A stretch of 41,541 nt of DNA, from assembly GCA_023381995.1 (NCBI GenBank), contig JAMCVD010000065.1:1-41541 (forward strand), written 5' to 3'. Positions 2,390-28,026 of the stretch are shown here, piece after piece (within the stretch, counting starts at the first letter, position 1; every line of letters starts with the position of its first letter). The notes below the pieces were generated by a model that saw only the letters and a program-made list of their open reading frames with translations, had not been told where the DNA came from and searched no databases. The DNA is from Deltaproteobacteria bacterium (GTDB lineage Bacteria > JAMCPX01). The translations under genes and the position numbers were made by a program.

Positions 2390-2563
2390 ATGTTTGCCCT
2401 GGCTATAAAGCACTACTACGGGCCGCACAGGCTGATTGTCTTTGTTCTTGAAAGCGCTGTTATCGGCTTCTTCTACTGGGGACTGTACTACCTGTTCGGA
2501 CTGACAGAAGTGGAGAAGACACGGTATGCGGGGTATTTAAAGCAGTTCGTGGGGAAACAGTGA
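2390..2563 (+). pseudogene. 3' fragment of a second Wzx flippase gene
   Basis: An in-frame stretch of 57 codons ends in TGA at 2561-2563. It reads ALAIKHYYGPHRLIVFVLES and then GFFYWGLYYLFGLTEVEKTRY. This closely matches the C-terminal residues of the flippase at 216-1751 (IRHYFTPHKLIVFVLES, then GLFYWGLYYLFGLTDDEKARY). Many third-base differences show it is a diverged paralogue, not a recent copy. The ATG at 2390 is probably fortuitous, because the fragment lacks the first ~450 residues of the family. It marks a deletion or recombination scar left of TA module 2. Confidence 0.8.
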
Positions 2564-2610
2564 AACAGAAATATCACCTTATAAGGGCACCTTTTTGCAC
2601 CAATCTTATC
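2542..2610 (+). repeat. Left copy of 69-bp direct repeat flanking TA module 2
   Basis: These 69 bases recur at 3232-3300 with two mismatches. The copy covers the last codons and stop of the flippase fragment and the following 47 bases. The second toxin-antitoxin pair lies between the copies, with 690 bp between repeat starts. Confidence 0.9.
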
Positions 2611-2688
2611 ATGCCTTATCAAGTTCTATTCCGGCAATATTGAGAAATCGGATGTCCATCTATTCCCGATCATAACGCCCCGCACCAT

Positions 2689-2716
2689 TTGACTTATCCT
2701 TAGAATAATATACATT
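2689..2716 (+). promoter_or_regulatory. Candidate promoter of TA module 2
   Basis: TTGACT at 2689-2694 and TACATT at 2711-2716 are separated by 16 bp. The -10 ends six bases before the toxin ATG and no Shine-Dalgarno is present, so this too would give a nearly leaderless message. Confidence 0.35.
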
Positions 2717-2722
2717 AATAAA

Positions 2723-2992
2723 ATGAGAATTGTATTTACAGAACATGCCAGATTTGAAGCGGAACGAAGAGGCATAAAAGAAGATACTATAAGAGATTTA
2801 ATAAATCAGCCACAACAAGAGATTCCCATTCAAAAAGGTAGAGTTATTTTTCAAAATAAATATTTTGATACTTCAATAAAAAAGGAGATGCTTTTAAGAG
2901 TTATAGGTAAAAAAGTACATAATAGGTTTATAGTAATTACTGCGTATAAAACTTCACGGATAGAAAAATACTGGGGAAAAGGAGAAAAGTAA
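2723..2992 (+). CDS. DUF4258 toxin-like protein of TA module 2
   Basis: An 89-residue protein with the DUF4258 pattern. It has an N-terminal FTEHARFEAERRGI helix, a central VIFQNKYFDT strand region, then LLRVIGKK and FIVITAYKTSRIEKYW. The last motif is typical of this RelE/HigB-like superfamily. It is followed after one base by a DUF2283 gene, the standard partner. The role as a translation-blocking toxin is inferred from the family and pairing. The module sits between two copies of a 69-bp repeat. Confidence 0.75.
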   Translation: MRIVFTEHARFEAERRGIKEDTIRDLINQPQQEIPIQKGRVIFQNKYFDTSIKKEMLLRVIGKKVHNRFIVITAYKTSRIEKYWGKGEK

Positions 2993-7772: not shown

Positions 7773-9200
7773 TTAATAGAATTTTAACTTAAACATAGCA
7801 ATTATACTGATCCTTAGCATAGTCAGTCCATTTTTTAACACATTTTTCATTTTCGTTACACCATAAATCCTTTCATAGTAATGCACCGGCAAATCAACGA
7901 TTTTTAGATTAATCTTTGCTGCTCCCAAAAGCAAATCATAATCCCCCCACCTGTCCACCATGCCCCAACTGCCTATATAATTTTTTAACCGCTCATAATC
8001 CCGCCTCCAAAGGACTTTTGTTCCACAGAGTGTATCTTTAATGGGGGCATCAATTATATACGAAAAAAAGACACTGAAAAATTTGTTGCCTAAATAGTTG
8101 AAGAATTTCATTGCATTTTCATGCATCGGATACACGAGTCTTGAACCATTAATGAATTCACCATGTTCATTTTTTATAGCTTCATAAAAATAAGGCAGCT
8201 CTTCCGGTAGGACAGAAAGATCAGCATCCAGTATCATCAAAATATCACCTTTAGCTGTATTAAAACCTGTCCAGACATTCTTCGATTTACAAATCCCGGG
8301 ACCAAATACCAGCTTTACATCCTTTTGCGGATAGTGTTTCATCATTTCTAAAACCTTTTCAGGCGTTCCATCCGTAGATTTATCATCGGCAAATATAATT
8401 TCAGTGTGCGTGCCTAACGGCGGCATCCTCTTCACTGCATCTTCAATATTACCAACTTCATTCTTACAAGGAATGATGATTGAAACAGAATAATCTTTGT
8501 TATCAGTGAAAACAGGCCGTGCAATATTTATTCTAATAAAAGCCAAATGCTTGAATAATGGAAGTCTTGAAACAAATTTGTTTAATAGATAGGAGAGCAT
8601 CGGGAAATAAAAGGGAAATAATATTATTTGTTTTGTATTTATAAACTCAAAATTGCTTAATTTAAGAAAGTTTTTTATATCGTCTATAGAAAGCCAGTTA
8701 TGTAATTTCTGGGGGACTTTAAGTTTTAATCGCTCAGCCATCCTGACAGCAGGGTTCCATAGATAGTTGTAGTTCACAATTATTATCCGCGTATGCTTGT
8801 AGCTACATTTTCTTATGGAATCGAACAGGGCTTTTATATCGACTATATCTTCAATATTTGTAATCAGGATATAATCGAATTTTTCATCGATCTCTAATGC
8901 TTCAGGGTTCTGGTTTATAAAGGTAAGATGCGGATAGCTTTTTTTAGCCTCTTCAATCTGAAGCGAAGTGTCATCAATACCTACGCCTTTTTTAGGATTT
9001 AAAGCATTCAGTAAATAACCGACACTGCATCTTATATGTAATACTTTTGAATTTTCTTCTATGATAAATTTCAGCGATTTTATCAGTTGATTATAATAAT
9101 ACGGATTGGCCTTTATCCATTTAATTCTTTCCCCAGCAAGAGAATCATTTTTAGTGCTTATATCAAATCTATGCTTTTGTAGGAAGGGATGATCAATCAT
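7773..9200 (-). CDS. Methyltransferase-like / GT2 glycosyltransferase fusion
   Basis: A 475-residue two-domain protein. Residues about 1-210 look like a class I methyltransferase, but motif I reads VLHIRCSVGYLL instead of the usual D/EIGCGTG, so SAM binding is doubtful. Residues about 235-475 are a GT2 glycosyltransferase of the dolichol-phosphate-mannose-synthase type, with SVSIIIPCKNEVGNIED, the FADDKSTDGT nucleotide loop and LDADLS carrying the DxD metal site. No C-terminal membrane pair is present. It is the first gene of the five-gene glycan operon and probably makes a polyprenyl-phosphate sugar that the GT39 enzyme could use. No strong promoter was recognised upstream (9201-9304 on the other side). 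Confidence 0.8.
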   Translation of the reverse strand: MIDHPFLQKHRFDISTKNDSLAGERIKWIKANPYYYNQLIKSLKFIIEENSKVLHIRCSVGYLLNALNPKKGVGIDDTSLQIEEAKKSYPHLTFINQNPEALEIDEKFDYILITNIEDIVDIKALFDSIRKCSYKHTRIIIVNYNYLWNPAVRMAERLKLKVPQKLHNWLSIDDIKNFLKLSNFEFINTKQIILFPFYFPMLSYLLNKFVSRLPLFKHLAFIRINIARPVFTDNKDYSVSIIIPCKNEVGNIEDAVKRMPPLGTHTEIIFADDKSTDGTPEKVLEMMKHYPQKDVKLVFGPGICKSKNVWTGFNTAKGDILMILDADLSVLPEELPYFYEAIKNEHGEFINGSRLVYPMHENAMKFFNYLGNKFFSVFFSYIIDAPIKDTLCGTKVLWRRDYERLKNYIGSWGMVDRWGDYDLLLGAAKINLKIVDLPVHYYERIYGVTKMKNVLKNGLTMLRISIIAMFKLKFY

Positions 9201-9304
9201 AGGACATACAATGTTTAAAAGAGGCTCTGGAACATTTAAACCACCCTTTGGAACGCAATTGGAGTTATGTTCAAAAATTTCGCCACTGCGATATAAAACT
9301 GGCT

Positions 9305-10276
9305 CTAATCCCCGCCCGGATCCTTAATAACAGCCTCCATGTCTCCTACCACCTTTATGCCGTATTGTTTTGCATATTCGACTACGCCGGGATACGGATA
9401 TACTCCCACGATGAACCTTGCGTCGATCTTTTTTCCCTCGGTCTTCTCGTAAAATTCTATTGTTCCATCGAATGCCTCCACCTCCCCCTTTGTGACGGAC
9501 GACTTGACTTCTATCGCTATCGCCCTTCCGTCAGTAATCAGAATGTCTATCTCCACTTCCCTGGGATGGCTGAACACCGTGCCGCTGGCGTCGACCTTTT
9601 TCCATTTCACAACACTATAGCCGGTTTCTTTCAATACTTGATCATAGCCTTCTCTAAACGAGTCCTCGGCCATTATGCCCCAGCGAGAGCCAAGCATATC
9701 CATCTTCCTTGTCAGAGACTTATCGAGGGCCTCAAACCGCTTGTCCAGATCTATTCTCAGTTCTTCAAACTTCTTGTCTATGGCCTCAAACCGCTTGTCT
9801 ATCGCCTCGAACTTTCGGTCAGAGTCCTCCCGCATGGCCTTGAGCTCTCCTTCGATAGCTTCAAACCTCCGTTCTGAGGCCTCGAACTTCCGGTCCATAT
9901 CCCTTTGCATGGCATCGAACTTAGCATCGGAAGCTTCCCGCATGGCCTTGAGCTCTCCTTCGATAGCTTCAAACCTCCGCTCTGAGGCCTCGAACTTCCG
10001 GTCCATATCCCTTTGCATGGCATCGAATTTAGCATCGGAAGCTTCCCGCATGGCCTTGAGTTCACGCAGCAGGGTGGTGAATTCCTGCCTGGTTGCAACA
10101 TCGCTCACAAGCAAGCCCACAAGCGTTGCACGCTTCTGCCTGTCGTCGCCAATCAGCTTTAAAATGCTCTCGGCGAGCCCCTCCACGTCCTTGCCCTTCA
10201 GGGCTGAATAACCACCTTCCGGCTCTTTCGACTCAAGGCGTTTGACCTGCTTTGTCTGTTTTGGCTTGTGCTTCAT
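9305..10276 (-). CDS. DUF3782-type coiled-coil protein with PD-(D/E)XK nuclease-like domain
   Basis: A 323-residue protein. Residues about 60-195 are a long charged coiled coil of heptad-like MREASDAKFDAMQRDMDRKF units. Two nearly identical 36-residue repeats lie there, with shorter RFEAIDK-type repeats after them. Residues about 205-323 form a nuclease-fold domain with EVEIDILITDGRAIAIEVKSS, matching the D...ExK pattern of the PD-(D/E)XK superfamily. Such proteins are common in archaea, cyanobacteria and thermophiles; their role is unknown and they are often mobile. The ATG at 10276 has only a weak ribosome site. It sits alone between the glycan operon and a zone of gene fragments. Confidence 0.72.
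   Translation of the reverse strand: MKHKPKQTKQVKRLESKEPEGGYSALKGKDVEGLAESILKLIGDDRQKRATLVGLLVSDVATRQEFTTLLRELKAMREASDAKFDAMQRDMDRKFEASERRFEAIEGELKAMREASDAKFDAMQRDMDRKFEASERRFEAIEGELKAMREDSDRKFEAIDKRFEAIDKKFEELRIDLDKRFEALDKSLTRKMDMLGSRWGIMAEDSFREGYDQVLKETGYSVVKWKKVDASGTVFSHPREVEIDILITDGRAIAIEVKSSVTKGEVEAFDGTIEFYEKTEGKKIDARFIVGVYPYPGVVEYAKQYGIKVVGDMEAVIKDPGGD
9829..10044 (-). repeat. Two tandem 108-bp repeats inside the coiled-coil gene
   Basis: Copies 9829-9936 and 9937-10044 differ at two positions only, far closer than codon drift would allow, so the duplication is recent. Each unit encodes 36 residues, which keeps both the reading frame and the coiled-coil phase. Confidence 0.9.
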
Positions 10277-10531
10277 GCTTATACTGATACCATAGTTATT
10301 AAAGAAAGCAAATCATTTTTGTTTTGACACCGTGCAGTTATCCATGATAGACAAATGCATTATGACAACCCCTGAAACTGAAACACTCGGCGCCTGCCTT
10401 ACTCTATAATTCTTCACACGATAGTACTATCGGGATTTCGTGACCCGGTTATCACCATGCAGTTGCAGTTTTTCATGGTTGTGGTAATCTACCTACACCG
10501 TCATGATCATAAATGGGAAAGTACAAGACAA
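10277..10531. other. Intergenic stretch with 14-bp palindrome
   Basis: No gene is seen. CGATAGTACTATCG at 10419-10432 is a perfect palindrome, and a TATAAT stands nine bases before it (10405-10410) without a convincing -35. It resembles a repressor site overlapping a start region for the downstream plus-strand glycosyltransferase remnant. Confidence 0.4.
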
Positions 10532-11095
10532 ATGATTTCTATAATTTGCGTATATAATAACAAAGATATTTTAGAAAATTACCTACTCAAGAGCTTGAAA
10601 ACCCAGACTACCAAGTTTGAGCTTATACCTATAGACAACACAAACTACAAATTTAAATCAGCATCTAAAGCACTTAACTTTGGAGGAGAGAAGGCAAATA
10701 ACAAGTATATAATGTTTGTACATCAGGATGTAGAATTGGTCTCTGCTTCATGGTTGCAGGATGTAGAACAATATCTTGATTCAATACAAAATCTCGGGAT
10801 AGCTGGCGTAGCAGGTGTGGCTGAAACCGGCAATACGGACGAGGAAAGAGCGAGAAACGTTATCAGGCACGGCCCGGATTATCATGTATGGGGACCGGGA
10901 AACAGCATCAACACTCCAGAGCCGGTGCAGACCCTGGACGGGGATCATCGGGGTCTGGGCTACACTTTTGACAATTCATTTCAGACGCCATCCTTGCCCT
11001 GGCCGCACAGCCCCGTGGAACAGCACAGCGCCGGGTCGAAGATCGCTATTTTTTTACTCCGCATTGTTACTCCTTTCTCTCAGCCTTCTGTTTAA
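10532..11095 (+). pseudogene. Truncated GT2-like glycosyltransferase
   Basis: From the ATG at 10532 the protein reads MISIICVYNNKDILENYLL, then a GGEKANNKYIMFVHQDVEL segment. This matches GT2-like enzymes whose DxD position is HQDVE. Similarity runs to about NTPEPVQTLD (base ~10940), where family members continue with an ECL/VFDE catalytic region. Here the frame instead runs on through unrelated DNA, including the antisense of arsD/arsR, to a stop at 11095. The gene is therefore truncated by a rearrangement at about 10940-11000. Reading back to a start at 10457 is possible but adds unrelated residues. Confidence 0.7.
10981..11064 (-). pseudogene. arsD: arsD remnant (first ~21 codons)
   Basis: Directly after arsR, with AAAGGAG upstream, an ATG at 11064 opens a frame reading MRSKKIAIFDPALCCSTGLCG. 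This is the conserved ArsD start, including the Cys12-Cys13 and Cys18-equivalent arsenic ligands. Six residues later it stops (TGA at 10981-10983). ArsD normally runs to about 110-120 residues and delivers As(III) to ArsA. The start overlaps the arsR stop by 11 bases, as in an intact ars operon. The remainder of the operon was lost at the breakpoint shared with the glycosyltransferase fragment. Confidence 0.8.
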
Positions 11096-11452
11096 CGTTA
11101 TGGCACTGCAAAATGCCACACCCTTTTTGTTTACCTCTTTCAGTTTCTTGTTATCTTTTTGAAGCAGGGGATCGTCCTGGGGTAACGACGGCAGAAGACG
11201 GATGAAGTCAAGGTTATGTGTGTTCGTCTTGTCCTGCGAAAGCCTGTAGAACGACCAGGTACCTCTTTTCTCTGCCTCGATAAGTCCCGCATTCCTGAGG
11301 ATCCCGAGATGCTTGGATACCGTCGACTGCCCCATGCCCAGTATCTCCATGAGCTGGCACACGCATAGTTCATTCTGTGTGAGAAGGGTCATTATCCTCA
11401 CCCTTGTTCCATCCGACAGTGCTTTCGATGTTCTGATAAAATCTTTCAGCAT
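11054..11452 (-). CDS. arsR: ArsR-family metalloregulator
   Basis: A 132-residue winged-helix repressor. Residues 1-90 carry the ArsR fold, with KALSDGTRVRIMTLL and then the metal-sensing ELCVCQLMEIL helix. The Cys-Val-Cys pair is the arsenite/antimonite site of the classical alpha3 type. The recognition helix GQSTVSKHLGILRNAGLI follows. A longer basic C-terminal tail contains one more cysteine (VAFCSA). The ATG at 11452 has AAAGGA at proper spacing. It represses its own promoter in known cases; a consensus promoter and dyad lie just upstream. The neighbouring arsD is only a stub, so no resistance pump remains in this window. Confidence 0.85.
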   Translation of the reverse strand: MLKDFIRTSKALSDGTRVRIMTLLTQNELCVCQLMEILGMGQSTVSKHLGILRNAGLIEAEKRGTWSFYRLSQDKTNTHNLDFIRLLPSLPQDDPLLQKDNKKLKEVNKKGVAFCSAITLNRRLRERSNNAE

Positions 11453-11473
11453 ATTTTATTCCTTTATCATGAT

Positions 11474-11510
11474 ATGGTGATATAATAACCATGGCACCGA
11501 TGCATGTCAA
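11474..11510 (-). promoter_or_regulatory. arsR promoter with overlapping operator dyad
   Basis: On the minus strand TTGACA (11505-11510), a 17-bp spacer and TATTAT (11482-11487) form a near-consensus sigma70 promoter. An inverted repeat ATGGT-N9-ACCAT (11474-11492) is centred on the -10, where an ArsR dimer would block polymerase. A second perfect palindrome TATCATGATA lies at 11465-11474. Confidence 0.75.
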
Positions 11511-11536
11511 GGAATTGGAAGAGTACTCGTGTCGCT

Positions 11537-12004
11537 TTAGTACTTGTTTTTGGATTTGACCAATCTTCTGATGTCTTTCAAATCGTCTTTCCGATAAAAA
11601 TAATTTTTTAATACCAGTAAATCTTCTTGGGAAACGAAGCAGGCTTTTACGTCCCTGAAGTCCGCGACTACTTTCCTCTTATACATCTCGTCGAAGGAGA
11701 ATCGGCCCTGCCTGTTGAATATGTCAATTCTGTGTGGTTCAACGCCTATAAAATAAATCTCTTTCTCTCCGATGAGCTCGTCTGGCTTGACATCAATACC
11801 CGCAAAATCTTTTATGGCCAAGGCGCACTTTTTACTGTTCTCTTTCGAGTGCCTTATCCATAGGTCTATGTCCTTTGTTCCTCTTGCAACCCGTGTATGA
11901 TACATAACTGCATAAGCGCCTATTATAAGATACTCTACACCGTGTTTGTTCAGTAATTCTATGAAGTCCCTATAATCATCTTCGAATTGCTTTTCTTTTC
12001 CCAT
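11537..12004 (-). CDS. Nucleotidyltransferase-fold protein (DUF6036-like)
   Basis: A 155-residue protein with a minimal nucleotidyltransferase fold. Near residue 30 it has YLIIGAYAVMYHTRVARGTKDIDLWI, where G-A replaces the usual GG/GS and the D-x-D metal pair is present. A third acidic strand, HRIDIF, follows. Family members are annotated as nucleotidyltransferases of unknown substrate, and some belong to toxin-antitoxin-like pairs. The ATG at 12004 is preferred because AGGAAGG stands just upstream; the in-frame TTG at 12019 lacks one. The gene overlaps the small upstream ORF by 29 bases, indicating coupled expression. Confidence 0.72.
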   Translation of the reverse strand: MGKEKQFEDDYRDFIELLNKHGVEYLIIGAYAVMYHTRVARGTKDIDLWIRHSKENSKKCALAIKDFAGIDVKPDELIGEKEIYFIGVEPHRIDIFNRQGRFSFDEMYKRKVVADFRDVKACFVSQEDLLVLKNYFYRKDDLKDIRRLVKSKNKY

Positions 12005-12191
12005 ACACCTTCCTGTCAACTTTCATAGGACCGGGGATATTGAATAAATGCATGACGGTCTTTTTTATATCATACACGCGGTCGAGGACCCCGTTAAAGT
12101 CTTTCTCCGCATTCAAGGACTCTATTTCTTCGTACGTGCCGCTGCCGTAGATTATCCTTCTGCCCTCTTTGATAATACCTGTAATCTTCAT
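11976..12191 (-). CDS. Small uncharacterised protein paired with the nucleotidyltransferase
   Basis: A 71-residue basic protein starting MKITGIIKEGRRIIYGSG, with a good AGGGGG ribosome site before the ATG at 12191. The N-terminus looks like a short beta hairpin and the middle an acidic helix; the tail (RKVYGKRKAIRR) is strongly basic. It is not recognised beyond resembling small partners of DUF6036-type nucleotidyltransferases. The 29-base overlap with the next gene suggests that the two proteins act together. Confidence 0.55.
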   Translation of the reverse strand: MKITGIIKEGRRIIYGSGTYEEIESLNAEKDFNGVLDRVYDIKKTVMHLFNIPGPMKVDRKVYGKRKAIRR

Positions 12192-12395
12192 GCTTCCCCC
12201 TATTGGGATCTGTCATCGCCAGGTTTTAATAGCCTCTGCATTCCATCACCTTATTGAAAGGATACTATTAAATCCCTGTCCGGTCAATAGGAGGAAGGTC
12301 ACAACCGATACTCCTCGCATCCGTACACTATACTCCATCCATGGCATGGGATGTTTTCGAAGAAAAGGCATGTGAGTACGATAAACAGAACAGCG

Positions 12396-13919
12396 CTATT
12401 GAAGGAACAGGATGCAGTCCGGGGCGCCGGACTTGCATGGAATCACCGTTATCGTATGCGTGGACCGCGGTCCGCGCGTATAGCTCAGGACACCGGTCGA
12501 TGGATCAAAGCTTGCTGAACCATCCGTCGTTGTGACGGTAAACCCGTCCGGGAAGTGTAACCTGGGCAAGTACAGCTCGGTTGTCCCATGACCGATGCCG
12601 TCTTCTTTGTATGTATAGGTGAACGTGGTCGTTGAAAAGCTTGCCGGGTCCGTCGTTATTGGATAGCTTATGCTCACGGGCGTGCCCGCGGTCAGCATGG
12701 GGTACGGCCTTGTCAGGATATCCATAATAGGGAAGGCATCGTTCCCGGTCGAACCAAGCAGCATCATCCCGCCGCTTTCACCAAAGGCCTCACCGTACGC
12801 CCAGAACATCCAGTTGCTGAGCTCGCTGTCGAACTCGTTCAGCAGTGCGGTCATGTATGCCGCGCTGTTGTCCTCGTTGTGATCCAGCCCCATCTCCCCT
12901 ATAATGTAGGGGGCCTTCATCACACTGCTTACGTGGGATATGGAAGGTATGGTGGACTGCAGCGAGGATATCTCCGAGTCGTCTATGCTGCTGCCAAAGC
13001 TCAAAGGATAGTAGTGGGGAACAAACACAAGGCCGGCAACGTCCTGCGAGAAGGTGGTACCGCTTATGCCCGTGTTATAGTTATGGAAGACATTTGCCAT
13101 TATTGCGGACGGCTCGAAGGCTATGAGGTGCGAAGCGTCCACGGTCCTTATTGCCTGTGCGACCTTTTCGTAAAAAGGTACCAGTGCCCGGACCTCAAAG
13201 TCCGTGGTAAAGGGACTGTACCTGCCCGGGAAAGGCTCATTCATAATCTCGTATCCGAGGACATTCGCCGTACCGCTGAACCTCCGCGCCACCGCCTGAA
13301 ACACCGCCGTATAATGTTCCTGGAGGCCTACACCGTCCGGAGCGGGCTTATCGTCCCAGAAATTCTGGAAAGACTGCATGACCGCAGGGACGGTATAATT
13401 AAGTCCCCATGTGCTTGTATTGCACTGGCCGACATCGTATCCGCTCAGGTCGCATGCCCATTCAGGCGCCCCGTCGCCGTAGCAAAGGTATTGACTGTAA
13501 AGGTCCTGATGCATATCGAGCAATACCAGCAAGCCATCGTCACCGCATATCTGTACCTCTTGCTGTATCTGATCGAGATAGTCTGTATCGATGCTCCCGG
13601 GCGAGGGCTCGAGCCCGGCCCATATGATGATGAGCCGTACAGCGTCGAAACCAGCCTGCCTGATGTTCGCAAAATAGGCAGTGGTCTGAGAAATGGTGGC
13701 TGCAGGCGGGTTGTCCGGCAGATACGGCGGCACCTTCTGGCTCACATTCACGCCGTGGACGACAATCACCCTGCCCTGCGTGTCCCTGAGCCACGGAGCG
13801 TCAGACCATACAGCGTCGTGCACCACGGCGCTGACGTCCGGTCCTCTGCGGGAGCATCCGGCAGCGAACAATGCAACCATCACAAACACCGAAGACAGAA
13901 GCATTCCCTTCATGGGCAT
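12396..13919 (-). CDS. GH5 endoglycoceramidase-like lipoprotein
   Basis: A 507-residue protein with a lipoprotein signal ending FAAGC (lipidated Cys22), so it is probably membrane-anchored and extracytoplasmic. The barrel shows RLIIIWAGLEPSPG and LLVLLDMHQDLYSQ. The acid/base YEIMNEP (Glu about 228) and the nucleophile in IIGEMGLDHNED (Glu about 342) are both present. This arrangement, with a C-terminal beta-sandwich of about 100 residues, is the plan of bacterial endoglycoceramidases, which release glycan from glycosphingolipids or similar amphiphiles. Other GH5 activities are possible. The ATG at 13919 is chosen over a TTG at 13949; GAGGGGAG lies somewhat far upstream. It is divergent from hbd. 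Gap 12192-12395 shows no gene. Confidence 0.8.
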   Translation of the reverse strand: MPMKGMLLSSVFVMVALFAAGCSRRGPDVSAVVHDAVWSDAPWLRDTQGRVIVVHGVNVSQKVPPYLPDNPPAATISQTTAYFANIRQAGFDAVRLIIIWAGLEPSPGSIDTDYLDQIQQEVQICGDDGLLVLLDMHQDLYSQYLCYGDGAPEWACDLSGYDVGQCNTSTWGLNYTVPAVMQSFQNFWDDKPAPDGVGLQEHYTAVFQAVARRFSGTANVLGYEIMNEPFPGRYSPFTTDFEVRALVPFYEKVAQAIRTVDASHLIAFEPSAIMANVFHNYNTGISGTTFSQDVAGLVFVPHYYPLSFGSSIDDSEISSLQSTIPSISHVSSVMKAPYIIGEMGLDHNEDNSAAYMTALLNEFDSELSNWMFWAYGEAFGESGGMMLLGSTGNDAFPIMDILTRPYPMLTAGTPVSISYPITTDPASFSTTTFTYTYKEDGIGHGTTELYLPRLHFPDGFTVTTTDGSASFDPSTGVLSYTRGPRSTHTITVIPCKSGAPDCILFLQ

Positions 13920-13979
13920 CAGGGTAGTATACTCCCCTCTCTGTGTCAAACAACACGCGCCAGATTTTCACATAATCCC

Positions 13980-14007
13980 TTGCCTGCCGTATGCATTTAT
14001 GTATAGA
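13980..14007 (+). promoter_or_regulatory. Candidate promoter of the hbd gene cluster
   Basis: TTGCCT (13980-13985), a 16-bp spacer and TATAGA (14002-14007) precede the AGGAGG ribosome site of hbd. Both boxes match at four of six positions, so this is only a reasonable guess. Confidence 0.38.
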
Positions 14008-14027
14008 ACATGCCGTAAGGAGGCTGT

Positions 14028-14891
14028 ATGATACAGAGAATTGCAGTACTTGGTGCAGGACAGATGGGAAGCGGTATAGCCCAGGTCGGCGCTGTGTCAG
14101 GCAAGGACGTGATCCTCTATGACATAAAAGACGAATTCCTGAACAGAGGCCTGAAGGCCATACAGTCGAGCCTCGACAGGTTCGTCCAGAAGGGGAAGAT
14201 GACGGACGCGGACAGGACCGCGGCGATACACCGCATCAAGCCGACATCGGAGCTCTCCGAGATAGCCCCTGCAGAATTTTTGATAGAGGCCATACCTGAA
14301 GACCCGGCATTGAAGCTCGACACATTCAGGAAGCTCGACTCACTCGTAAGCAAGGACGTCGTATGTGCCTCCAATACCTCGTCCATCTCCATAACCCGCA
14401 TAGCGGGCGTCACAAAAAGGGCCGACAGGGTCATCGGTATGCACTTCATGAACCCGGTACCCCTGATGAAGCTCGTCGAGATCATAAAAGGCATCGAGAC
14501 ATCGGACGAGGCCCTCGACACGACCCTCGAGCTTGCACGGCAGCTCGGCAAGACAACGGTCGTCTCAAAGGACTCGGCAGGGTTTATAGTGAACAGGATA
14601 CTCGCACCATGGATAAACGAGGCCGTCTATGCGCTGCTCGAAGGCATCGCGGCACCGGTGGACATCGACACAGCGATGAAGCTCGGCACCAATGTGCCGA
14701 TGGGGCCGCTGGAGCTCGCGGACTTCATAGGGCTCGATACGATGCTTGCAATCCTCGAGGTGCTGTATAAGGATATGGGTGACCCCAAATACAGGCCCTG
14801 CCCCCTCCTGCGCAGACACGTCGAGGCAGGCATGCTCGGAAGGAAGACAGGGAGGGGGTTCTATCGATATCTACCGGGGGGGAAGGCATGA
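14028..14891 (+). CDS. hbd: 3-hydroxybutyryl-CoA dehydrogenase
   Basis: A 287-residue enzyme that oxidises (S)-3-hydroxyacyl-CoA to 3-oxoacyl-CoA with NAD(P), or runs the reverse in butyrate formation. It has the N-terminal dinucleotide loop [13 protein letters not shown] (7-19), an aspartate at the end of strand two (YDIKD), and catalytic His139 in GMHFMNP with Glu151. The C-terminal dimer domain contains [17 protein letters not shown] and ends in the usual [11 protein letters not shown]. An AGGAGG lies four bases before the ATG. It is the first gene of a run with enoyl-CoA hydratase and acyl-CoA dehydrogenase, which points to short-chain acyl-CoA oxidation or butyryl-CoA synthesis. Confidence 0.93.
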
Positions 14892-14911
14892 GCTCCGCCA
14901 AAGGAGATTAT

Positions 14912-15694
14912 ATGGAATATAAGACGATAAAACTGGAGCTTGACGGCGCGGTTGCGACCATCGTCCTCAACAGGCCGGAAGTACTCAACGCACTCAACTC
15001 TCAAATGCTCGATGAACTGAGGCAGTGCCTCGACGAACTGAAGCAGCACGCGGAGCTCAAGGCATGTATACTCGTCGGCGCGGGAGGGAAGGCCTTCGTT
15101 GCGGGCGCCGACATAAAAGAGCTGAGCTCCCTCGGGCCGTTCGGAGCATCGGCCTTCTCGGCGAAGGGAGAGGACGTAAAGCAAAAGATGGACGAGCTCG
15201 GTGTCCCATTCATAGCGGCGGTCAATGGCTTTGCCCTCGGCGGAGGATGCGAGCTTGCCATGTCATGCGATATGATCATTGCGAGCGATGACGCAAAGTT
15301 CGGGCAACCGGAAATAAATCTCGGGATCATACCTGGCTTTGGAGGGACACAGAGGCTTGCGAGGCTTGCGGGCAAGGCCATGGCTGCAGAGCTCATCCTT
15401 ACGGGCGACCCGATAACGGCACAGCAGGCAAAGGGAATAGGGCTCGTAACCAGGGTCGTCGAAAAGGACAAGCTGATGGACGAGGCAAGGTCCGTCGCCG
15501 CAAAAATAGCATCCAAGTCCAAGACCGCCATTATGATGGCCAAACGTGCCATAGACTACGGTATAGAGACGGACCTGAGAACGGCACTCGAGATAGAGCG
15601 TGACGCCTTTGCAGTGCTGTTCTCCACGGAGGACCATGCGGAGGGCCTGAAGGCGTTTATGGAGAAGAGAAAGCCCGTCTTCAAGGACAGGTAG
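14912..15694 (+). CDS. Enoyl-CoA hydratase (crotonase)
   Basis: A 260-residue crotonase-fold protein that hydrates trans-2-enoyl-CoA. The oxyanion-hole segments AGADIKEL (65-72) and NGFALGGGCELA are present, with catalytic Glu114 (CELA) and Glu134 (GQPEINLG), followed by the PGFGGTQRL signature. Both glutamates are kept, so hydratase activity is expected. An ATG at 14888 overlaps the hbd stop (ATGA), but the ATG at 14912 has AAGGAG at ideal distance and gives the usual family N-terminus, so it is chosen. It works between acyl-CoA dehydrogenase and hbd in the same cluster. Confidence 0.93.
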   Translation: MEYKTIKLELDGAVATIVLNRPEVLNALNSQMLDELRQCLDELKQHAELKACILVGAGGKAFVAGADIKELSSLGPFGASAFSAKGEDVKQKMDELGVPFIAAVNGFALGGGCELAMSCDMIIASDDAKFGQPEINLGIIPGFGGTQRLARLAGKAMAAELILTGDPITAQQAKGIGLVTRVVEKDKLMDEARSVAAKIASKSKTAIMMAKRAIDYGIETDLRTALEIERDAFAVLFSTEDHAEGLKAFMEKRKPVFKDR

Positions 15695-15713
15695 GGACCG
15701 ACAGGAGAATGGT

Positions 15714-16856
15714 GTGCAGTTTGAACTGACGGACGAACAGAAGATGATACAGCAGACGGCGAGGGACTTCGCAGACGGCGTCATAAAGCCGAGGGCGAAG
15801 GATCTGGACCAGACCGGGGCGTTCCCTTCCGATATCGTGAAGAAGCTTGCGGAACTCGGCTTTATGGGAATCATGGTGCCTCCGGAATACGGGGGCTCCG
15901 GCCTGGACACAATATCGTATGTCCTTGCAATGGAGGAAATATCCTCCGCATGCGCAAGTACAGGCGTGATCATGTCAGTGAACAACTCCCTCGTGTGCGA
16001 CCCTCTCGCGAGGTTCGGCAGCGAAGAGCAGAAAAGGGAGTTCCTTACACCCCTTGCAAAGGGAGAAAAGCTCGGATGCTTCGCCCTCTCCGAGCCGAAC
16101 GCCGGCTCCGACGCCGCCCGGCAGCAGACAACGGCGGCCCAGGACGGAGACAGTTTCGTCATCAACGGTACCAAGAACTTCATAACGAACGGCAGAGAGG
16201 CCGATATCGCGATAGTGTTTGCCATGACCGATAAGGCGAAGGGACACAAGGGCATAAGCACATTCATTATACCAAGGGACACAAAAGGATTTTCCGTAAG
16301 CAGACTTGAGCACAAGCTCGGCATACGAGCGTCTTCGACCGCGCAGTTCGTCCTCGAGGACGTAAGGGTAGACAGGAGGAATATGCTTGCAAACATAGGA
16401 GACGGATTCAAGATCGCCATGTCCACGCTGGACGGCGGCAGGATCGGCATCGCGTCGCAGGCACTCGGGATAGCGAAGGCCGCGATGGAAGAATCGGTAG
16501 AGTTTGCAAAACAGAGGGAGGCGTTCGGACAGATCATACACAACTTCGAGGCAATCCAGTGGATGGTCGCAGACATGGCGACGAGGCTCGACGCCGCGAG
16601 GCTCCTCACCCTGAGGGCCGCATACCTGAAAGACAGGAAGGCAAGGTTCTCGAAAGAGGCAGCAATGGCAAAGCTGTTTGCGGCCGAGGCGGCCATGTGG
16701 ATAACCACGAAGGCGATACAGATACACGGGGGCTACGGGTATACGACAGACTATCCGGTCGAACGTCACTTCAGGGACGCAAAGATAACGGAGATATACG
16801 AGGGCACATCAGAGATCCAGAGGCTGGTCATTGCAACAAACATATTTAAGGAGTAA
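15714..16856 (+). CDS. Short-chain (butyryl-type) acyl-CoA dehydrogenase
   Basis: A 380-residue FAD enzyme of the normal acyl-CoA dehydrogenase length. It shows CFALSEPNAGSD (FAD/substrate contact), GTKNFITNG, and near the C-terminus the QIHGGYGYTTDYPVERHFRD region. The catalytic base is Glu363 in IYEGTSE, the short-chain position. The start is GTG at 15714 with AGGAG six bases upstream; an ATG at 15709 is in another frame and stops at once. It would oxidise butyryl-CoA or a similar acyl-CoA and pass electrons to ETF. No etfAB genes are in this window. Confidence 0.92.
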   Translation: MQFELTDEQKMIQQTARDFADGVIKPRAKDLDQTGAFPSDIVKKLAELGFMGIMVPPEYGGSGLDTISYVLAMEEISSACASTGVIMSVNNSLVCDPLARFGSEEQKREFLTPLAKGEKLGCFALSEPNAGSDAARQQTTAAQDGDSFVINGTKNFITNGREADIAIVFAMTDKAKGHKGISTFIIPRDTKGFSVSRLEHKLGIRASSTAQFVLEDVRVDRRNMLANIGDGFKIAMSTLDGGRIGIASQALGIAKAAMEESVEFAKQREAFGQIIHNFEAIQWMVADMATRLDAARLLTLRAAYLKDRKARFSKEAAMAKLFAAEAAMWITTKAIQIHGGYGYTTDYPVERHFRDAKITEIYEGTSEIQRLVIATNIFKE

Positions 16857-16857
16857 A

Positions 16858-18504
16858 ATGGGTCGCATGAAACAATACATTCTACCGAAGATTGCCGTGG
16901 CGCTGCTGCTCGCGACGGCCGCGGGGTGTGCGGCACCCCGGGAGACGCTAAAACCAACTCCCGCTCAACCAGTCCAGCAGCCGCAGCAGACGACATCATG
17001 CCTGAGCTGCACGTACATGCAGAAAGGGAGGTACGGCGATGTCATCAGGCTCCTATCGACGAGGACCGGACCGCTCGACTACAAAGACGCACTGAACCTC
17101 GGCACGGCGTACCTCATCTCCGGCTATACCAACAATGCCATCTACGTCTTCAAGTCGATGCTGGAGCAGTACCCACGGGACATCGCCGTCATGAACAACC
17201 TGTCGGTCGCTCTCTACACGAACGGGCTCCATGATGTGGGGAGCAGCATCATGCAGAACACAGCCATGCTCTCGGGCAATATCTACCCCATTGCATTCAA
17301 CCTCGCACAGATCGACACGTTCAACGACGAATACAGCAGTGCAGCGGCGTCCCTTGCCGGCATAGCCTCCCAGCCCATTTCGGACATCGGGTGGGGGGTC
17401 CTCTATCTCAAAAAGAAAGAATACGGGAAGGCGGTCTCAAGCCTCAGGAAGGCACTGGTCTCGTTCCCGGACAACCCCGCTGTCTATAGGGGCATCGGCA
17501 TGGCATACGCAGGCATGGGCCAGACGGTCCCTGCAATAAACAACCTCAAAAAGGCAGTGGAGCTGGACAGGTCCCTCATAGGTACCTTCATCCCGCTCTC
17601 GATGCTCCAGAACAGCGAGGGAAACAAAGGCCATGCAAAAAACAGCCTGTACAGGGGCATCGCTCGCGCAGAAAAGATAAAGGCAAACAATCTCTCCCTC
17701 TATGCCCACTACATGATAGAATTCATAAAGGCGATGTACCTGCAGGCCGACTTCGCCGACTCCATCCTGCTTATAAACAAGACGCTCCCCCAGATCCAGC
17801 CCCTGAACGACAAGGGCCTGAACGCCCGGATATACAATATCGCGGGAGACGACTATTACGCACTGAAGGCATTCGACAGGGCGGTACAGGCCTACTCTTA
17901 TGTTTTGGAATACAACCCGGACAACGAGCATGCCTACAAAGGCACCGCAAGCGCCTATCTCGACATGCCTGCCCTGCCAAACCAGCCACAGGAACAAGGC
18001 AAGATCGAGAACCTCCAGAAGGCCGTGGAAAATATAAAGAGGGCAATCTCCATAGACCCGAACGATGCAAGCGCCTTCATCATCGCCGGGAACATATACT
18101 ACGCCTACTCCCAGCATATAAGCGGCGAGCAGAGGACGGAGCAGTTCAACAATGCGATATTATCGTACACGAAGGCCAGCGCCCTATCTCCAGACGACTA
18201 CAGTGTCCAGCTCAAGCTCGGCGCACTCTACTACCTCGCGGACAAAGACAAAATGAGCATCCAGGCCCTCAACAACGCCCTCCGCAACGGGGCAAGCCCG
18301 GCAGAAGCCATGCCGCTGCTCGCCGGGGTGTACTACATATCCGGAAACTATGCAACGGCACTCAGCGAGTACGACCTGATCATAAAACAGTTCCCCTACT
18401 ACTGTCCGGCCTATACGGCGAAGGGCCTGATACTCATGAAAACAGGCAAGAAACAAGAGGCCGAATCAGTGCTCGGACAGTCCGACAGATGTAAGACGCG
18501 ATAA
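16858..18504 (+). CDS. TPR-repeat lipoprotein
   Basis: A 548-residue protein with an N-terminal lipoprotein signal ending ATAAGC (Cys24), then a proline/glutamine-rich linker with a CLSCTY motif. About ten or more tetratricopeptide-like units follow; examples are NPAVYRGIGMAYAGMGQTVPAINNLKKA and NEHAYKGTASAYLDM. It should lie in the periplasm, anchored to a membrane, and act as a protein-interaction scaffold. The ATG at 16858 has AAGGAG that overlaps the acyl-CoA dehydrogenase stop; a longer TTG start at 16831 is unlikely. Co-transcription with the beta-oxidation genes and with murI is probable from spacing, yet no shared function is evident. Confidence 0.82.
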   Translation: MGRMKQYILPKIAVALLLATAAGCAAPRETLKPTPAQPVQQPQQTTSCLSCTYMQKGRYGDVIRLLSTRTGPLDYKDALNLGTAYLISGYTNNAIYVFKSMLEQYPRDIAVMNNLSVALYTNGLHDVGSSIMQNTAMLSGNIYPIAFNLAQIDTFNDEYSSAAASLAGIASQPISDIGWGVLYLKKKEYGKAVSSLRKALVSFPDNPAVYRGIGMAYAGMGQTVPAINNLKKAVELDRSLIGTFIPLSMLQNSEGNKGHAKNSLYRGIARAEKIKANNLSLYAHYMIEFIKAMYLQADFADSILLINKTLPQIQPLNDKGLNARIYNIAGDDYYALKAFDRAVQAYSYVLEYNPDNEHAYKGTASAYLDMPALPNQPQEQGKIENLQKAVENIKRAISIDPNDASAFIIAGNIYYAYSQHISGEQRTEQFNNAILSYTKASALSPDDYSVQLKLGALYYLADKDKMSIQALNNALRNGASPAEAMPLLAGVYYISGNYATALSEYDLIIKQFPYYCPAYTAKGLILMKTGKKQEAESVLGQSDRCKTR

Positions 18505-18557
18505 GCCATCGACGGCAATACGGGGGAACGATTCTTTCGTATCGAAGGGCGTTAACG

Positions 18558-19403
18558 ATGAGGAACAAGGGTATCGGCATATTCGACTCGGGCGTCGGCG
18601 GACTGACCGTCCTCAAAGAGATCAGGAAGCTGTTGCCGGAGGAAGACATATTCTATCTCGGAGATACGGCGCGCGTACCGTACGGGAACAGATCCAGGGA
18701 CACGATCGTCAACTACTCCATCCAGAACACCGGCTTCCTCATAAAACAGGGCATCAAGCTGCTCGTCGTTGCCTGCAACACGTCATCATCGGTCGCTCTG
18801 GAGACACTGAGGCGCACCTTCACAGGGCTCCCGATCATCGGCGTCATAGAGCCGGGCTCCGAGCAGGCGGTCCACATGACGACAAACATGAGGATAGGGG
18901 TCATAGGGACAAGGGCGACCATCACGAGCGACTCATACAGGACGGCCATCAATCTGCTCGATAATGGTGTAAAGGTATTTCAGCAGGCATGCCCCCTGTT
19001 CGTGCCGATCGTCGAAGAAGGCATGCACAGAACGGCACTGGCAGGGGACGTCGCGGAATACTACCTCGCCCCGCTGAAAAGACACGGTATAGACACCATC
19101 ATACTGGGGTGCACACACTACCCGGCCCTCTCGCCTATAATAAAAACAGTCATGGGCAGCCGGGTGACACTGATCAATTCGGGTCAGGCCGTCGCCATAA
19201 AGACGTATGAATATCTATCCGGGCACGACCTGCTCAAAGATGGGGTACAGGGACCGGACGCCCGGGGGCGGTCGCCTGTGCGAGGGCACATGAGATTTTT
19301 CGTAACGGACGATCCCCCGCAATTCAAGAAGATAGGCAGGTTGCTTCTTTCGCGGGAAATTGATAGTAATGTACGTAAAGTGGTATTGGAAGATCATGAA
19401 TAA
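18558..19403 (+). CDS. murI: Glutamate racemase
   Basis: A 281-residue cofactor-independent racemase that makes D-glutamate for peptidoglycan in the cytoplasm. The N-terminal GIFDSGVGGLTVL, the first catalytic cysteine Cys73 in VACNTSS and the second Cys185 in LGCTHYP are all present, as is GDTARVPYG. A short polar insertion (GPDARGRSPVRG) near the C-terminus slightly lengthens the usual protein. AAGGGC is the ribosome site. The 3' end overlaps the next gene by eight bases, so the two are translated together. Confidence 0.95.
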   Translation: MRNKGIGIFDSGVGGLTVLKEIRKLLPEEDIFYLGDTARVPYGNRSRDTIVNYSIQNTGFLIKQGIKLLVVACNTSSSVALETLRRTFTGLPIIGVIEPGSEQAVHMTTNMRIGVIGTRATITSDSYRTAINLLDNGVKVFQQACPLFVPIVEEGMHRTALAGDVAEYYLAPLKRHGIDTIILGCTHYPALSPIIKTVMGSRVTLINSGQAVAIKTYEYLSGHDLLKDGVQGPDARGRSPVRGHMRFFVTDDPPQFKKIGRLLLSREIDSNVRKVVLEDHE

Positions 19404-19935
19404 AAGGCACAACATTACGATCACGCTCATCGGTCTCCTTCTCCTGGTGGCGATCGGCGCATATGTCGTCCACAGACTTTACACACGTCCTGTCCTGCCG
19501 CCAGTAAAACCAGTCTCGGCAGAACGGATCGTCACGCTGTATTTCTATGACCCTGATACGGACACCCTCAAGTCGGAACAGAGGATGGTCGCATCTTCAA
19601 CGGACATCGTCGATACATGCAGGACAATCGTATCTGAGCTCGAACGTGGATCGATGACAGGTCTCTCTCGGCCCATCCCCCCTGACGTAAAAGTGAACAG
19701 GGCCTCGTGGCGAAACAACGGCGTGCTCGTGATCGATCTGTCGGACAATCTCGTCAAAGAGACGCCCGAAGGCTCTTCCGCCGAGATCTCGGCCGTCTAT
19801 GCGATCGTCGACTCGATTGCAAAAAACATCGGTGGCGTCAATGCCGTACAGTTGACCGTCGACGGCAGGTCCCTCGAAACCCTTGAAACGCACATCGAGA
19901 TCGATCAGCCCATCGCTCCTGATTATACAAAATAA
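19396..19935 (+). CDS. GerMN-domain membrane-anchored protein
   Basis: A 179-residue protein with one N-terminal membrane helix (ITITLIGLLLLVAIGAYVV) and a short linker. A GerMN domain follows, from VTLYFYDPDTDTLKSEQR to VQLTVDGRSLETL, including LERG and VLVIDLSDNL. GerMN domains occur in sporulation/germination and cell-envelope proteins; with murI next to it an envelope role is likely. The ATG at 19396 has GGAAG in front and overlaps the murI stop; longer starts (TTG 19360, ATG 19369) are less likely. Confidence 0.78.
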   Translation: MNKRHNITITLIGLLLLVAIGAYVVHRLYTRPVLPPVKPVSAERIVTLYFYDPDTDTLKSEQRMVASSTDIVDTCRTIVSELERGSMTGLSRPIPPDVKVNRASWRNNGVLVIDLSDNLVKETPEGSSAEISAVYAIVDSIAKNIGGVNAVQLTVDGRSLETLETHIEIDQPIAPDYTK

Positions 19936-19952
19936 CGGACGGCCCAGCTCCC

Positions 19953-20784
19953 TTATCGAGCACCCTGTTCCAGGGAAGGCTTGCTGTATATAAGCCCGGT
20001 AAAGAGCTCTACACCTCTGGCAATTTCGAACGCCCTATCGAGGTTGGTGCTGTCATAGCCAGCGGGCAGGAGCCGTACCCAGCTTCTCAGGTTATCATAG
20101 AGATAGTTGACCTTGTCGAACGTCACGCACGGGCTCATGATGTGAATAAAAGAGAACCCCTTGTGCCGTATGCCCTCTTCAAACAATCTCTGCATCTCGT
20201 CGGGTGCGCCGGCGAACCCTCGTGCAACATATCCCGCACCGTATGATAGTGCGAGAAGTACAGGGTTCATTTTGGGATCCGGGTTTCCCATGGGATGTGA
20301 TCTCGTTATCTGGTGCTGCGGGGTCATGGGGCTTGTCTGCCCTTTTGTCAGTCCATAGATGGCATTGTCGAACAGAACGCATGTTATATCAGGATTTCTG
20401 CGTATCGTATGAGGCAGGTGGCCGGCCCCTATGCCGAGCCCGTCTCCATCGCCCACCAATGCAAGGACGGTGAGTTCCGGCCGTGCAAGCTTTGCCCCCG
20501 ATGCTACAGGGAGCGCCCTCCCATGAAGCGTATGCATACCGTATCCCCTCACGAAAAAACGGATACCTGCCCACACACCCTATGCCGGAAACAATGATGA
20601 GGTCCTTCGGCTTTACGCCGAGATTGCCCAACGCGTTGGTCAGCGCGGTCTCTATGCCGAAATAGCCACATCCTGGACACCAGGTCGGAAGCCTTTCGGA
20701 CCTATACTGGAGTACCCCCTTTTCCTTTACTTTCTGTATGTCCTCGTCCGGATAATATACTTCTGGTTTTACATATTGATCCAT
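19953..20784 (-). pseudogene. korB: 2-oxoacid:ferredoxin oxidoreductase beta subunit, frameshifted
   Basis: The first ~77 codons from 20784 read MDQYVKPEVYYPDEDIQ, with WCPGCGYFGIE and SGIGCVGRYPFF. The rest continues in the +1 frame as VRGYGMHTLHGRALPVASG, then the thiamine-diphosphate/Mg site VGDGDGLGIG and the FDN of the motif end. The two parts together give about 276 residues, the normal length. The break is at a run of six T (minus strand; A's at 20554-20559); one T fewer restores the frame exactly. This may be a sequencing error, a real inactivating change, or a slippage site. The subunit binds TPP and, with the alpha-gamma subunit, cleaves a 2-oxoacid such as 2-oxoglutarate. It is last in the operon. 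Confidence 0.85.
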
Positions 20785-20787
20785 AGG

Positions 20788-22644
20788 TTATTCCTTGAGC
20801 AGCCTGTTTATTTCGGCCTCTATCTCGTCATGGGTTATCGGCCTTGTTGCAACCTTGTTGAACCTTAAGAATTTTTGTTGAAAATGTATCGAAAGCCAGT
20901 TTGCAAACTGTCCCTGATAATTCAGTTCCGGCACCAGCACCTTTTCGCAGTCATCCAAAAATGCCTGGATTTCTTTTTCCTTGAGTGGATTTATCACGAT
21001 CAGCTTGAGCATTGCCACACTTTTGCCTTCCTTGAGAACACTATCGACAGCATCTGCAACTGCACCGGCTGTCGAGCCCCACGATATAACGCCAAGCTTT
21101 ACCCTGCCCTTTTGCCCGATCCTCTCCGGCGACGGAACATCATGGTCAAGGGCCGTTTTTATTTTTCTGAACCTTTTTTGCGTCATGACCGTATGAGAAT
21201 ACTCGTCGTAAACGGGTGTACCGTACTCATTCTGCTCAAGTCCGGAAACGACCTGATACCCGTTTTCCTGCCCCGGAAGTGACCGAGGCGATACACCGTC
21301 ATCCGTTATTTTCTGGCGGAGATACAGTTTCATATCTTCCTGTGACGGTAATTTGTTGCTGCCCTTTTTGTAATCCGGAAGGGGGTCGAGCTGAACATTT
21401 CTGACAGACAACGATAAAAACAGATCTATCAGGACTATAACAGGCATCTGGTATTTTTCCGCAAGATAAAATGCCTCTGCCGTCCATTGGTAGCACTCTT
21501 TCACGCTGGTCGGTGCTACGACGATCCTCGGCGTATCTCCGTTTCCTCCGAACAATGCATGGTTCAGATCCGATTGCTCCGTTTTTGTCGGCAGGCCCGT
21601 TGCAGGACCGCCCCGCTGGCTGTCGACGATGACAACAGGGGTCTCCGACATGACATTGTATCCGATAAACTCGGTCATGAGGCAGAAACCGGGTCCAGAG
21701 GTCGCGGTCATTGCCCGTACACCGGCAAATCCTGCGCCCGTTACATGCCCAATCGCAGAGATTTCATCCTCGGTCTGTACAACGGCACCGCCGTGTTTCG
21801 GCAATTCAGCGAACAAGACCTCCATGATCTTCGTTGCAGGGGTAATCGGATAGCCTGCATACAGCTTGCATCCCGCATCAATCGCAGCCTGTGCAACTGC
21901 CTTATTGCCGTCCATCAGCTTGTAGCCTTTCCTGTCCACGGACAACCGTTCAAAGCTGTAGGGATCAAGCTTGACGACATTCTCACGCACATAGTTGTAG
22001 CCTTCTTCGAATGCGGCAACAACGGAATCCACGCTCTTGTCCTTCTTCCCGAGCTTCGCAGTAAGGTTGCCGATAAATTCATTTTTCGGTATGTTGAACA
22101 ATGCGGCGACAGAGCCGAGGACAACGATGTTCCTCGATCGGGACTCATTCGTTGTTTTCTGGCTCAACTGGTAAAGAGGTACGCCGTAGAGATACATGCC
22201 GGGACCAAGATGACCTGCAATACTCACCTGCTCACTGGTAATCTCTTTCCATCCTTCTTCTTCGGTATAGACACCGGGCCCCAGATGGTGTTTATCTGTT
22301 TGCCCCTCGTCCTGCTGTAAAACCTCATAGGTAATATCACGCTGCCGGTTATCGAATATGACCACGCCTTCGTCATTTAAATTTTTCAATTGCTCGATTG
22401 CATACCGGTCATTCAACGATACGAGTATGTCCACCTTGCTGCTGAGGCTGAGCATGATCTCCCTCCCTGCCCTCATGTGTGCTACGGTTTTCCCGAAGCC
22501 CCGTATCTCCGCAGGATAGGCATCGAACGATATAACATGGTACCCGATATCGGAAAGGGTCTTGATCAGTATTTCACCTGCTGCAAGGGACCTGTCTCCC
22601 GAGCTGCCGCATATTTCGATTGTCAGGCTTCTTTTATATGTCAA
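20788..22644 (-). CDS. korA: 2-oxoacid:ferredoxin oxidoreductase, fused gamma-alpha subunit
   Basis: A 618-residue fusion. The N-terminal ~190 residues are the gamma domain (EICGSSGDRSLAAGEIL). From about residue 230 the alpha domain shows GCKLYAGYPITPATKIME, then TEDEISAIGHVTGAGFAGVR and the ATSGPGFCLMTE signature. The architecture matches KorA-type 2-oxoglutarate enzymes, although other 2-oxoacids cannot be excluded. It would form succinyl-CoA or another acyl-CoA, with electrons to ferredoxin. The start is TTG at 22644 with AAAGGA seven bases upstream, overlapping the preceding gene by 11 bases. The beta gene follows after three bases. Confidence 0.87.
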   Translation of the reverse strand: MTYKRSLTIEICGSSGDRSLAAGEILIKTLSDIGYHVISFDAYPAEIRGFGKTVAHMRAGREIMLSLSSKVDILVSLNDRYAIEQLKNLNDEGVVIFDNRQRDITYEVLQQDEGQTDKHHLGPGVYTEEEGWKEITSEQVSIAGHLGPGMYLYGVPLYQLSQKTTNESRSRNIVVLGSVAALFNIPKNEFIGNLTAKLGKKDKSVDSVVAAFEEGYNYVRENVVKLDPYSFERLSVDRKGYKLMDGNKAVAQAAIDAGCKLYAGYPITPATKIMEVLFAELPKHGGAVVQTEDEISAIGHVTGAGFAGVRAMTATSGPGFCLMTEFIGYNVMSETPVVIVDSQRGGPATGLPTKTEQSDLNHALFGGNGDTPRIVVAPTSVKECYQWTAEAFYLAEKYQMPVIVLIDLFLSLSVRNVQLDPLPDYKKGSNKLPSQEDMKLYLRQKITDDGVSPRSLPGQENGYQVVSGLEQNEYGTPVYDEYSHTVMTQKRFRKIKTALDHDVPSPERIGQKGRVKLGVISWGSTAGAVADAVDSVLKEGKSVAMLKLIVINPLKEKEIQAFLDDCEKVLVPELNYQGQFANWLSIHFQQKFLRFNKVATRPITHDEIEAEINRLLKE

Positions 22645-23668: not shown

Positions 23669-23670
23669 GT

Positions 23671-25464: not shown

Positions 25465-25652
25465 ACAAAAGGTTCCTCTCTCCTTTACTATTACGAAGTA
25501 CCACTTCTATCTTTCGTGCTCTGTTACCATACCCACGGTACGGATGTCCAGAAAATTTTTATGCCGTCAAATCGGAATCAAAGATGGAACGGTCTGGGAC
25601 GAAGGCCAGCGTACGCACATATCGCCGACAAAGAATGCACGCATCACGGCAA

Positions 25653-27878: not shown

Positions 27879-27966
27879 ACATCGTGTCCGCGATTGCACG
27901 TCAGGATAAAGGCAAAAAGCCAAAAATACAATAAAAGGCTCCGGCGTACAGGGTCTCCCGATTTCC

Positions 27967-28015: not shown

Positions 28016-28026
28016 AAGGAGAAAAA

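What the first reader, a model, noticed from the sequence alone, without database searches (positions are those of the whole stretch)
10981..11510. Orphan arsR with a consensus promoter and only 21 arsD codons
The ArsR sensor (CVC motif), promoter and dyad are intact, but the operon it should control is cut off after the first cysteine motif of ArsD. The encoded 27-residue peptide keeps three cysteines (CC and C) and still has a good ribosome site, so a small metal-binding peptide might still be made.
Basis: partly seen in the sequence, partly recalled or inferred. Interest (0 to 1): 0.5.

Follow-up and report, generated by a model that had tools for sequence, protein, structure and literature searches.

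The report
Broken arsenic operon beside a repeat
A working-looking arsenic sensor gene with its own switch has lost the resistance genes it used to control, most likely because the genome was rearranged at that point; the leftover 27-residue peptide is probably just debris, so the finding is real but ordinary.

Summary
On the minus strand an intact 132-aa ArsR (11452-11054, CVC motif) has a near-consensus promoter and an operator. It overlaps the start of arsD, which keeps 21 homologous codons and stops after 27 (11064-10981).

The glycosyltransferase gene on the other side (10532-10940) is also cut, at about codon 136 of 291. The two breaks are separated by 60 bases that match neither gene and hold one terminal repeat of a REP-associated tyrosine transposase (RAYT) element.

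The same assembly has a second arsR-arsD-(Fe-S protein)-arsA-arsA cluster with a matching operator, so the sensor has a possible target in trans. The operator recurs before arsR, arsC-acr3 and other genes in the family. One operator position that is G at 17 of 17 other strong sites is A in the window.

Best reading: a relict of a second ars operon, cut by a rearrangement at a RAYT repeat on the edge of a variable polysaccharide cluster. ArsR probably still works; the peptide is probably a by-product. No second genome with this junction was found, so an assembly join cannot be excluded and peptide conservation could not be tested. Interest is low.

The parts
11505..11510 (-). -35 box TTGACA of the arsR promoter
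   Evidence: pattern scan, 11 of 12 with the -10 box and a 17-base spacer; TTGACA is shared by seven of the eight other arsR upstream regions aligned
11482..11487 (-). -10 box TATTAT of the arsR promoter
   Evidence: pattern scan
11465..11482 (-). ArsR-type operator TATCACCATATCATGATA, starting at the last base of the -10 box; position 13 is A where 17 of 17 other strong sites have G
   Evidence: pattern search in nine genomes; 16 of the 17 tabulated
11054..11452 (-). arsR, intact, 132 aa, ELCVCQL metal-site motif
11070..11074 (-). ribosome site AGGAG of arsD, inside the end of arsR
   Evidence: read directly; the region is conserved before intact arsD genes
10981..11064 (-). arsD stump: 21 homologous codons, 27 codons to the stop, three cysteines
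10941..11000 (.). 60-bp filler that matches neither the glycosyltransferase nor arsD; it encodes the last six residues and the stop of the stump
   Evidence: alignments to two intact glycosyltransferase genes and five intact arsD genes
10951..10973 (+). terminal repeat of a REP-associated tyrosine transposase element, GGGTCTGGGCTACACTTTTGACA
   Evidence: six sites in the own assembly within three mismatches, this one included, control 0; inverted pair around a RAYT gene on C51
10532..10940 (+). 5' part of a family-2 glycosyltransferase gene, cut at about codon 136 of 291
   Evidence: Pfam Glyco_tranf_2_5; intact homologues in G001 and G004

Best explanation
This is a relict of a second arsRDA-type operon. 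A rearrangement removed everything after codon 21 of arsD and joined the stump, through a 60-bp stretch carrying one RAYT terminal repeat, to a likewise truncated glycosyltransferase gene. ArsR probably still represses its own promoter and lets go on binding arsenite. Having the same kind of operator, it may also act on the second ars cluster of the genome in trans. The 27-residue peptide is probably translated at some level but is a by-product without a selected function. Shown by sequence: both truncations, the repeat, the shared operator and the second cluster. Inferred: the rearrangement and its mechanism, ArsR function, cross-regulation and the lack of peptide function.
For: Both genes stop matching intact homologues at the junction. 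The filler holds a 23-base repeat that also flanks, inverted, a RAYT gene in the same assembly. The only other ArsD match in the assembly is complete and on another contig, so no loose arsD remainder was found. The genus is heavily rearranged: three neighbouring window blocks lie about 100 kb apart on one G001 contig. ArsR is intact, with dN/dS 0.11-0.21 against six homologues, and its operator recurs across the family. G001 has an independent arsD stump after its own arsR, so loss of arsD is not unique.
Against: No second genome with the same junction was found, so a join made by the assembler is not excluded. The junction sits at a repeat and at a jump in G+C from 0.378 to 0.535. The dN/dS values reflect the history of the family, not use after the cut. 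The window operator has A at a position that is G elsewhere, which may weaken it. The lost 3' half of the glycosyltransferase was not found in the assembly, so the reciprocal product of a rearrangement is not seen.
Confidence: 0.65

Rival explanations
1. Assembly or binning artefact: two separate stretches of this genome, or of co-occurring strains, were joined at the junction, and the real operon continues elsewhere.
For: The assembly is a draft of 134 contigs, 84% complete. The junction is at a repeated sequence, G+C changes across it, and no independent copy of the junction was found.
Against: The shared repeat is only about 23 bases, the 60-bp filler is not a plain overlap of the two genes, no loose arsD remainder exists in the assembly, and other window blocks are also shuffled relative to G001 away from any such repeat.
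Confidence: 0.2
2. The truncated frame is a real small arsenic-binding peptide, kept by selection as a buffer or as a minimal carrier of arsenite.
For: It keeps the three cysteines that are reported as essential for ArsD chaperone function (PMC4562236, passages), an inherited ribosome site and translational overlap with arsR.
Against: The kept part is what any cut at this point would leave. Its end is junction sequence, it lacks the rest of the ArsD domain (profile 1-22 of 97), no homologue with the same end was found, and a different stump of 41 codons stands in G001.
Confidence: 0.05
3. Promoter capture: the ArsR-controlled promoter reads through the junction into the minus-strand genes further on (nuclease-like 10276-9305, then the polysaccharide genes 9200-3419), making them arsenite-inducible.
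For: These genes are on the same strand as arsR and the pattern scan found no minus-strand terminator between 11700 and 9100.
Against: About 700 bp of untranslated RNA, partly antisense to the glycosyltransferase, lies between and invites Rho termination (general knowledge). The scan is weak: its terminator counts are near those of shuffles. There are no expression data.
Confidence: 0.06

Closest known systems
arsRDA-type operons (plasmid R773 arsRDABC, recalled; in this family arsR-arsD-Fe-S-like-arsA-arsC-acr3)
   Same: ArsR with CVC, sigma-70-type promoter with the operator at the start region, arsR-arsD overlap, ArsD cysteine motif
   Different: Nothing of the operon after codon 21 of arsD remains at this locus
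ArsD metallochaperone (PF06953; NF033727)
   Same: First 21 residues, CC and C
   Different: The rest of the domain is missing; the last six residues are junction sequence
REP-associated tyrosine transposase (RAYT) elements (PMC2817692, abstract and passages)
   Same: Transposase gene on C51 flanked by two inverted repeats, plus scattered single repeats such as the window's
   Different: Only six sites within three mismatches in the own assembly, and a tight REP palindrome was not shown
Several ArsR proteins acting beyond their own operon (PMC7965956, abstract)
   Same: More than one ArsR in one genome, with a shared kind of operator
   Different: Cross-regulation is not tested here

Membership tests
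ArsR (metalloregulator ArsR/SmtB) | winged-helix domain of the family | tested here: met
   Pfam HTH_5 E 3e-19; NCBIfam NF033788 94.4 bits, cut-off 55; solved ArsR/SmtB structures match by sequence, best 2kko E 3e-10
ArsR (metalloregulator ArsR/SmtB) | arsenite-site CVC motif (recalled as typical of the R773 type) | tested here: met
   ELCVCQL read in the translation and present in the homologues aligned
ArsR (metalloregulator ArsR/SmtB) | arsenite-released binding to its operator | not testable with these tools
   only the recurrence of the operator sequence was shown
ArsD metallochaperone | full-length ArsD domain | tested here: not met
   profile positions 1-22 of 97 and 2-23 of 123
ArsD metallochaperone | three N-terminal cysteines | tested here: met
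   CCSTGLC in the stump
arsRDA-type operon | arsA and an exporter gene downstream | tested here: not met
   junction into a glycosyltransferase fragment; C51 has arsA; no Acr3 or ArsB match in the own assembly
RAYT/REP element | RAYT gene between two inverted repeats | tested here: met
   C51 copy: NF047646 82.8 bits, cut-off 80, inverted arms of 24 nt, 92% complementary; at the window there is a single end only
RAYT/REP element | GTAG head and compact palindrome in the repeat | tested here: inconclusive
   GTAG is read on the minus strand, but the fold of 10900-11070 is no better than shuffles, z -0.14

The most novel reading that the evidence does not exclude
A rearrangement has put nuclease-like and polysaccharide genes under an arsenite-released ArsR promoter, with the 27-residue cysteine peptide as a coupled leader product that binds arsenite.
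Probability: 0.03. Interest if true: 0.55.

Novelty: new member of a known kind. Interest (0 to 1): 0.17.

Why it matters
It shows how an arsenic operon can be dismantled while its sensor and switch are left whole. The side result may be more useful: one 18-bp ArsR-type operator that recurs before arsR, arsC-acr3 and other genes in the family defines a candidate arsenic regulon in a group known here only from draft assemblies; three of them carry metagenome-bin titles.

Tried and rejected
Looked for an exporter that would complete the system: no Acr3-family match and no ArsB match in the own assembly. Six of the nine genomes (G001, G003, G004, G005, G006, G008) have Acr3-like matches, none over NCBIfam's cut-off. 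With 84% completeness the absence proves little.

Looked for the lost 3' half of the glycosyltransferase in the own assembly with the G001 protein: nothing. The tool itself warns that such an empty answer shows little.

Looked for known RNA families in 9000-13000: none. One half of the junction as an exact pattern in viral contigs: none. Similar DNA in plasmids: none. ArsR relatives in viral contigs: none. A paper search for orphan arsR gave no paper holding that phrase among the six listed of 44; I make no claim about what is in print.

Considered that the weak operator-like sites at G000:C10 and C131 (two mismatches) belong to the regulon. Rejected, because the backward control pattern also hits at this level, once each in G002 and G004.

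Considered selection on the peptide: not measurable, because no second copy of the junction was found. dN/dS was computed for arsR only. The arsR gene changes its nearest relative along its length, but no formal recombination test was run.

Full report
Observation. On the minus strand arsR runs from 11452 to 11054 (132 aa, ELCVCQL) and is a clear ArsR/SmtB regulator. The promoter TTGACA-17-TATTAT (11 of 12) spans 11510-11482. The operator TATCACCATATCATGATA lies at 11482-11465, starting at the last base of the -10 box. arsD starts at 11064, overlapping the arsR end by 11 bases, with AGGAG five bases upstream. The frame stops after 27 codons, MRSKKIAIFDPALCCSTGLCGQGKDGV. It matches ArsD profile positions 1-22 of 97 and 2-23 of 123. 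Alignment with five intact arsD genes shows homology ending at about 11001.

The other side of the junction. The plus-strand gene starting at 10532 is a family-2 glycosyltransferase. Intact homologues are in G001 (same genus, L047) and G004 (same family, L050). Homology to both stops at about 10940, about 136 codons into a protein of about 291 residues counted from the matching methionine of G001. Two unrelated genes are thus broken at one place, with 60 bp between the breaks that match neither.

The filler. It contains GGGTCTGGGCTACACTTTTGACA (10951-10973). Within three mismatches the own assembly has six such sites, this one included, and none for the backward control. Two of the six stand inverted at the ends of a gene on contig C51 that NCBIfam names REP-associated tyrosine transposase, 82.8 bits against a cut-off of 80. 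G001 has 21 sites within two mismatches; G002, G003 and G006 have one to three; G004, G005, G007 and G008 have none. Tyrosine transposase genes flanked by two inverted REPs are a known kind of element (PMC2817692, abstract and passages). Against a full match to that kind, the window stretch does not fold better than shuffles. I infer that the rearrangement happened at such an end, or was followed by its insertion. The data do not show which.

The other ars genes. The own assembly has one other ArsD match, complete, on C51, in the order arsR, arsD, Fe-S-biosynthesis-like protein, arsA, arsA. Its arsR region is 81% identical in DNA to the window. No Acr3 and no ArsB match was found in the own assembly, which is 84% complete. 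Of 60 genomes searched with the junction region, eight match: the own one, G001, G003, G004, G005, G006 and G008 with the arsR part, and G033 with a short stretch of the glycosyltransferase only; the family members G002 and G007 do not match. Next to arsR, arsD is full length in G003, G004, G005 and G006. In G008 it is open to the contig end, 54 residues. In G001 the arsD next to arsR is itself a stump with a stop after 41 codons, while a second, full-length arsD lies further on. These operons have other neighbours than the window locus, so they do not show the same locus undisturbed.

The operator as a regulon mark. In nine genomes the pattern gave 17 sites other than the window's with at most one mismatch in at least one orientation. 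All 17 have G at position 13 (16 tabulated, the 17th read), whereas the window has A; the pattern allowed either base. Rows with two mismatches in both orientations were left out of this count, since the control pattern also hits at that level. Such sites stand before arsR genes and before an arsC-acr3 pair in G004, among other genes. ArsR proteins acting well beyond their own operon have been reported in Agrobacterium (PMC7965956, abstract). It is thus plausible, but untested, that the window ArsR acts on C51 in trans.

State of arsR. Pairwise dN/dS between the window gene and six homologues is 0.11-0.21, and 0.09-0.23 among the homologues themselves. This is the history of the gene family and not proof of present use. 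Along the gene the nearest relative changes: G008 in nucleotides 1-66, the own C51 copy through most of 34-198, G006 in 199-330, and G008 at 92-95% in 298-396. Exchange between copies is likely, but no formal test was run.

Real rearrangement or assembly join? For a real event: the genus is heavily rearranged. Window blocks 12434-19938, 19972-25465 and 25651-29849 lie at 53-61, 161-166 and 237-241 kb of one G001 contig, with the glycosyltransferase at 207 kb. The 60-bp filler is not a plain overlap, and no loose arsD remainder was found in the assembly. For a join: the junction is at a repeat, G+C changes from 0.378 to 0.535, the other half of the glycosyltransferase was not found, and no independent copy of the junction was found. 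I put the join at about 0.2.

The peptide. It retains the three cysteines reported as essential for ArsD chaperone function (PMC4562236, passages, citing Lin et al. 2007, which I did not see), but these are simply what remains of arsD. Its last six residues come from the junction sequence and there is nothing to compare it with. I consider it a by-product.

Verdict.

Noticed in passing
L049 (G001:C30) about 8096-6080: A second, independent arsD stump: the arsR frame runs on to 138 aa over the arsD start, the arsD frame stops after 41 codons, and a full-length arsD stands further downstream before arsA.
   Followed up: partly
L010 (G000:C51) 8158-9974: ArsA is encoded by two consecutive frames (316 and 278 aa), whereas G001, G003, G004 and G005 have one frame of 600-626 aa.
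   Followed up: no
window 9305-10276 (-): The DUF3782/PDDEXK protein has an internal, nearly identical repeat of 36 residues that the G001 homologue lacks.
   Followed up: no
L012 (G000:C129) 2399-2866 (-): A serine recombinase frame keeps only the last part of its resolvase domain (profile 61-145 of 145), and a RAYT-type repeat lies near its start: possibly another gene cut at such a repeat.
   Followed up: no
window 11537-12191 (-): A nucleotidyltransferase gene with a small overlapping partner. A pair 59-63% identical stands beside the DUF3782 gene in G001, on the other side of it.
   Followed up: no
L083-L088, L053 (G003, G004, G005, G006, G008): The ArsR-type operator also precedes genes without an obvious arsenic role, for example a 207-aa FHGHKCPFMPIGYRMG protein in several genomes.
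   Followed up: no
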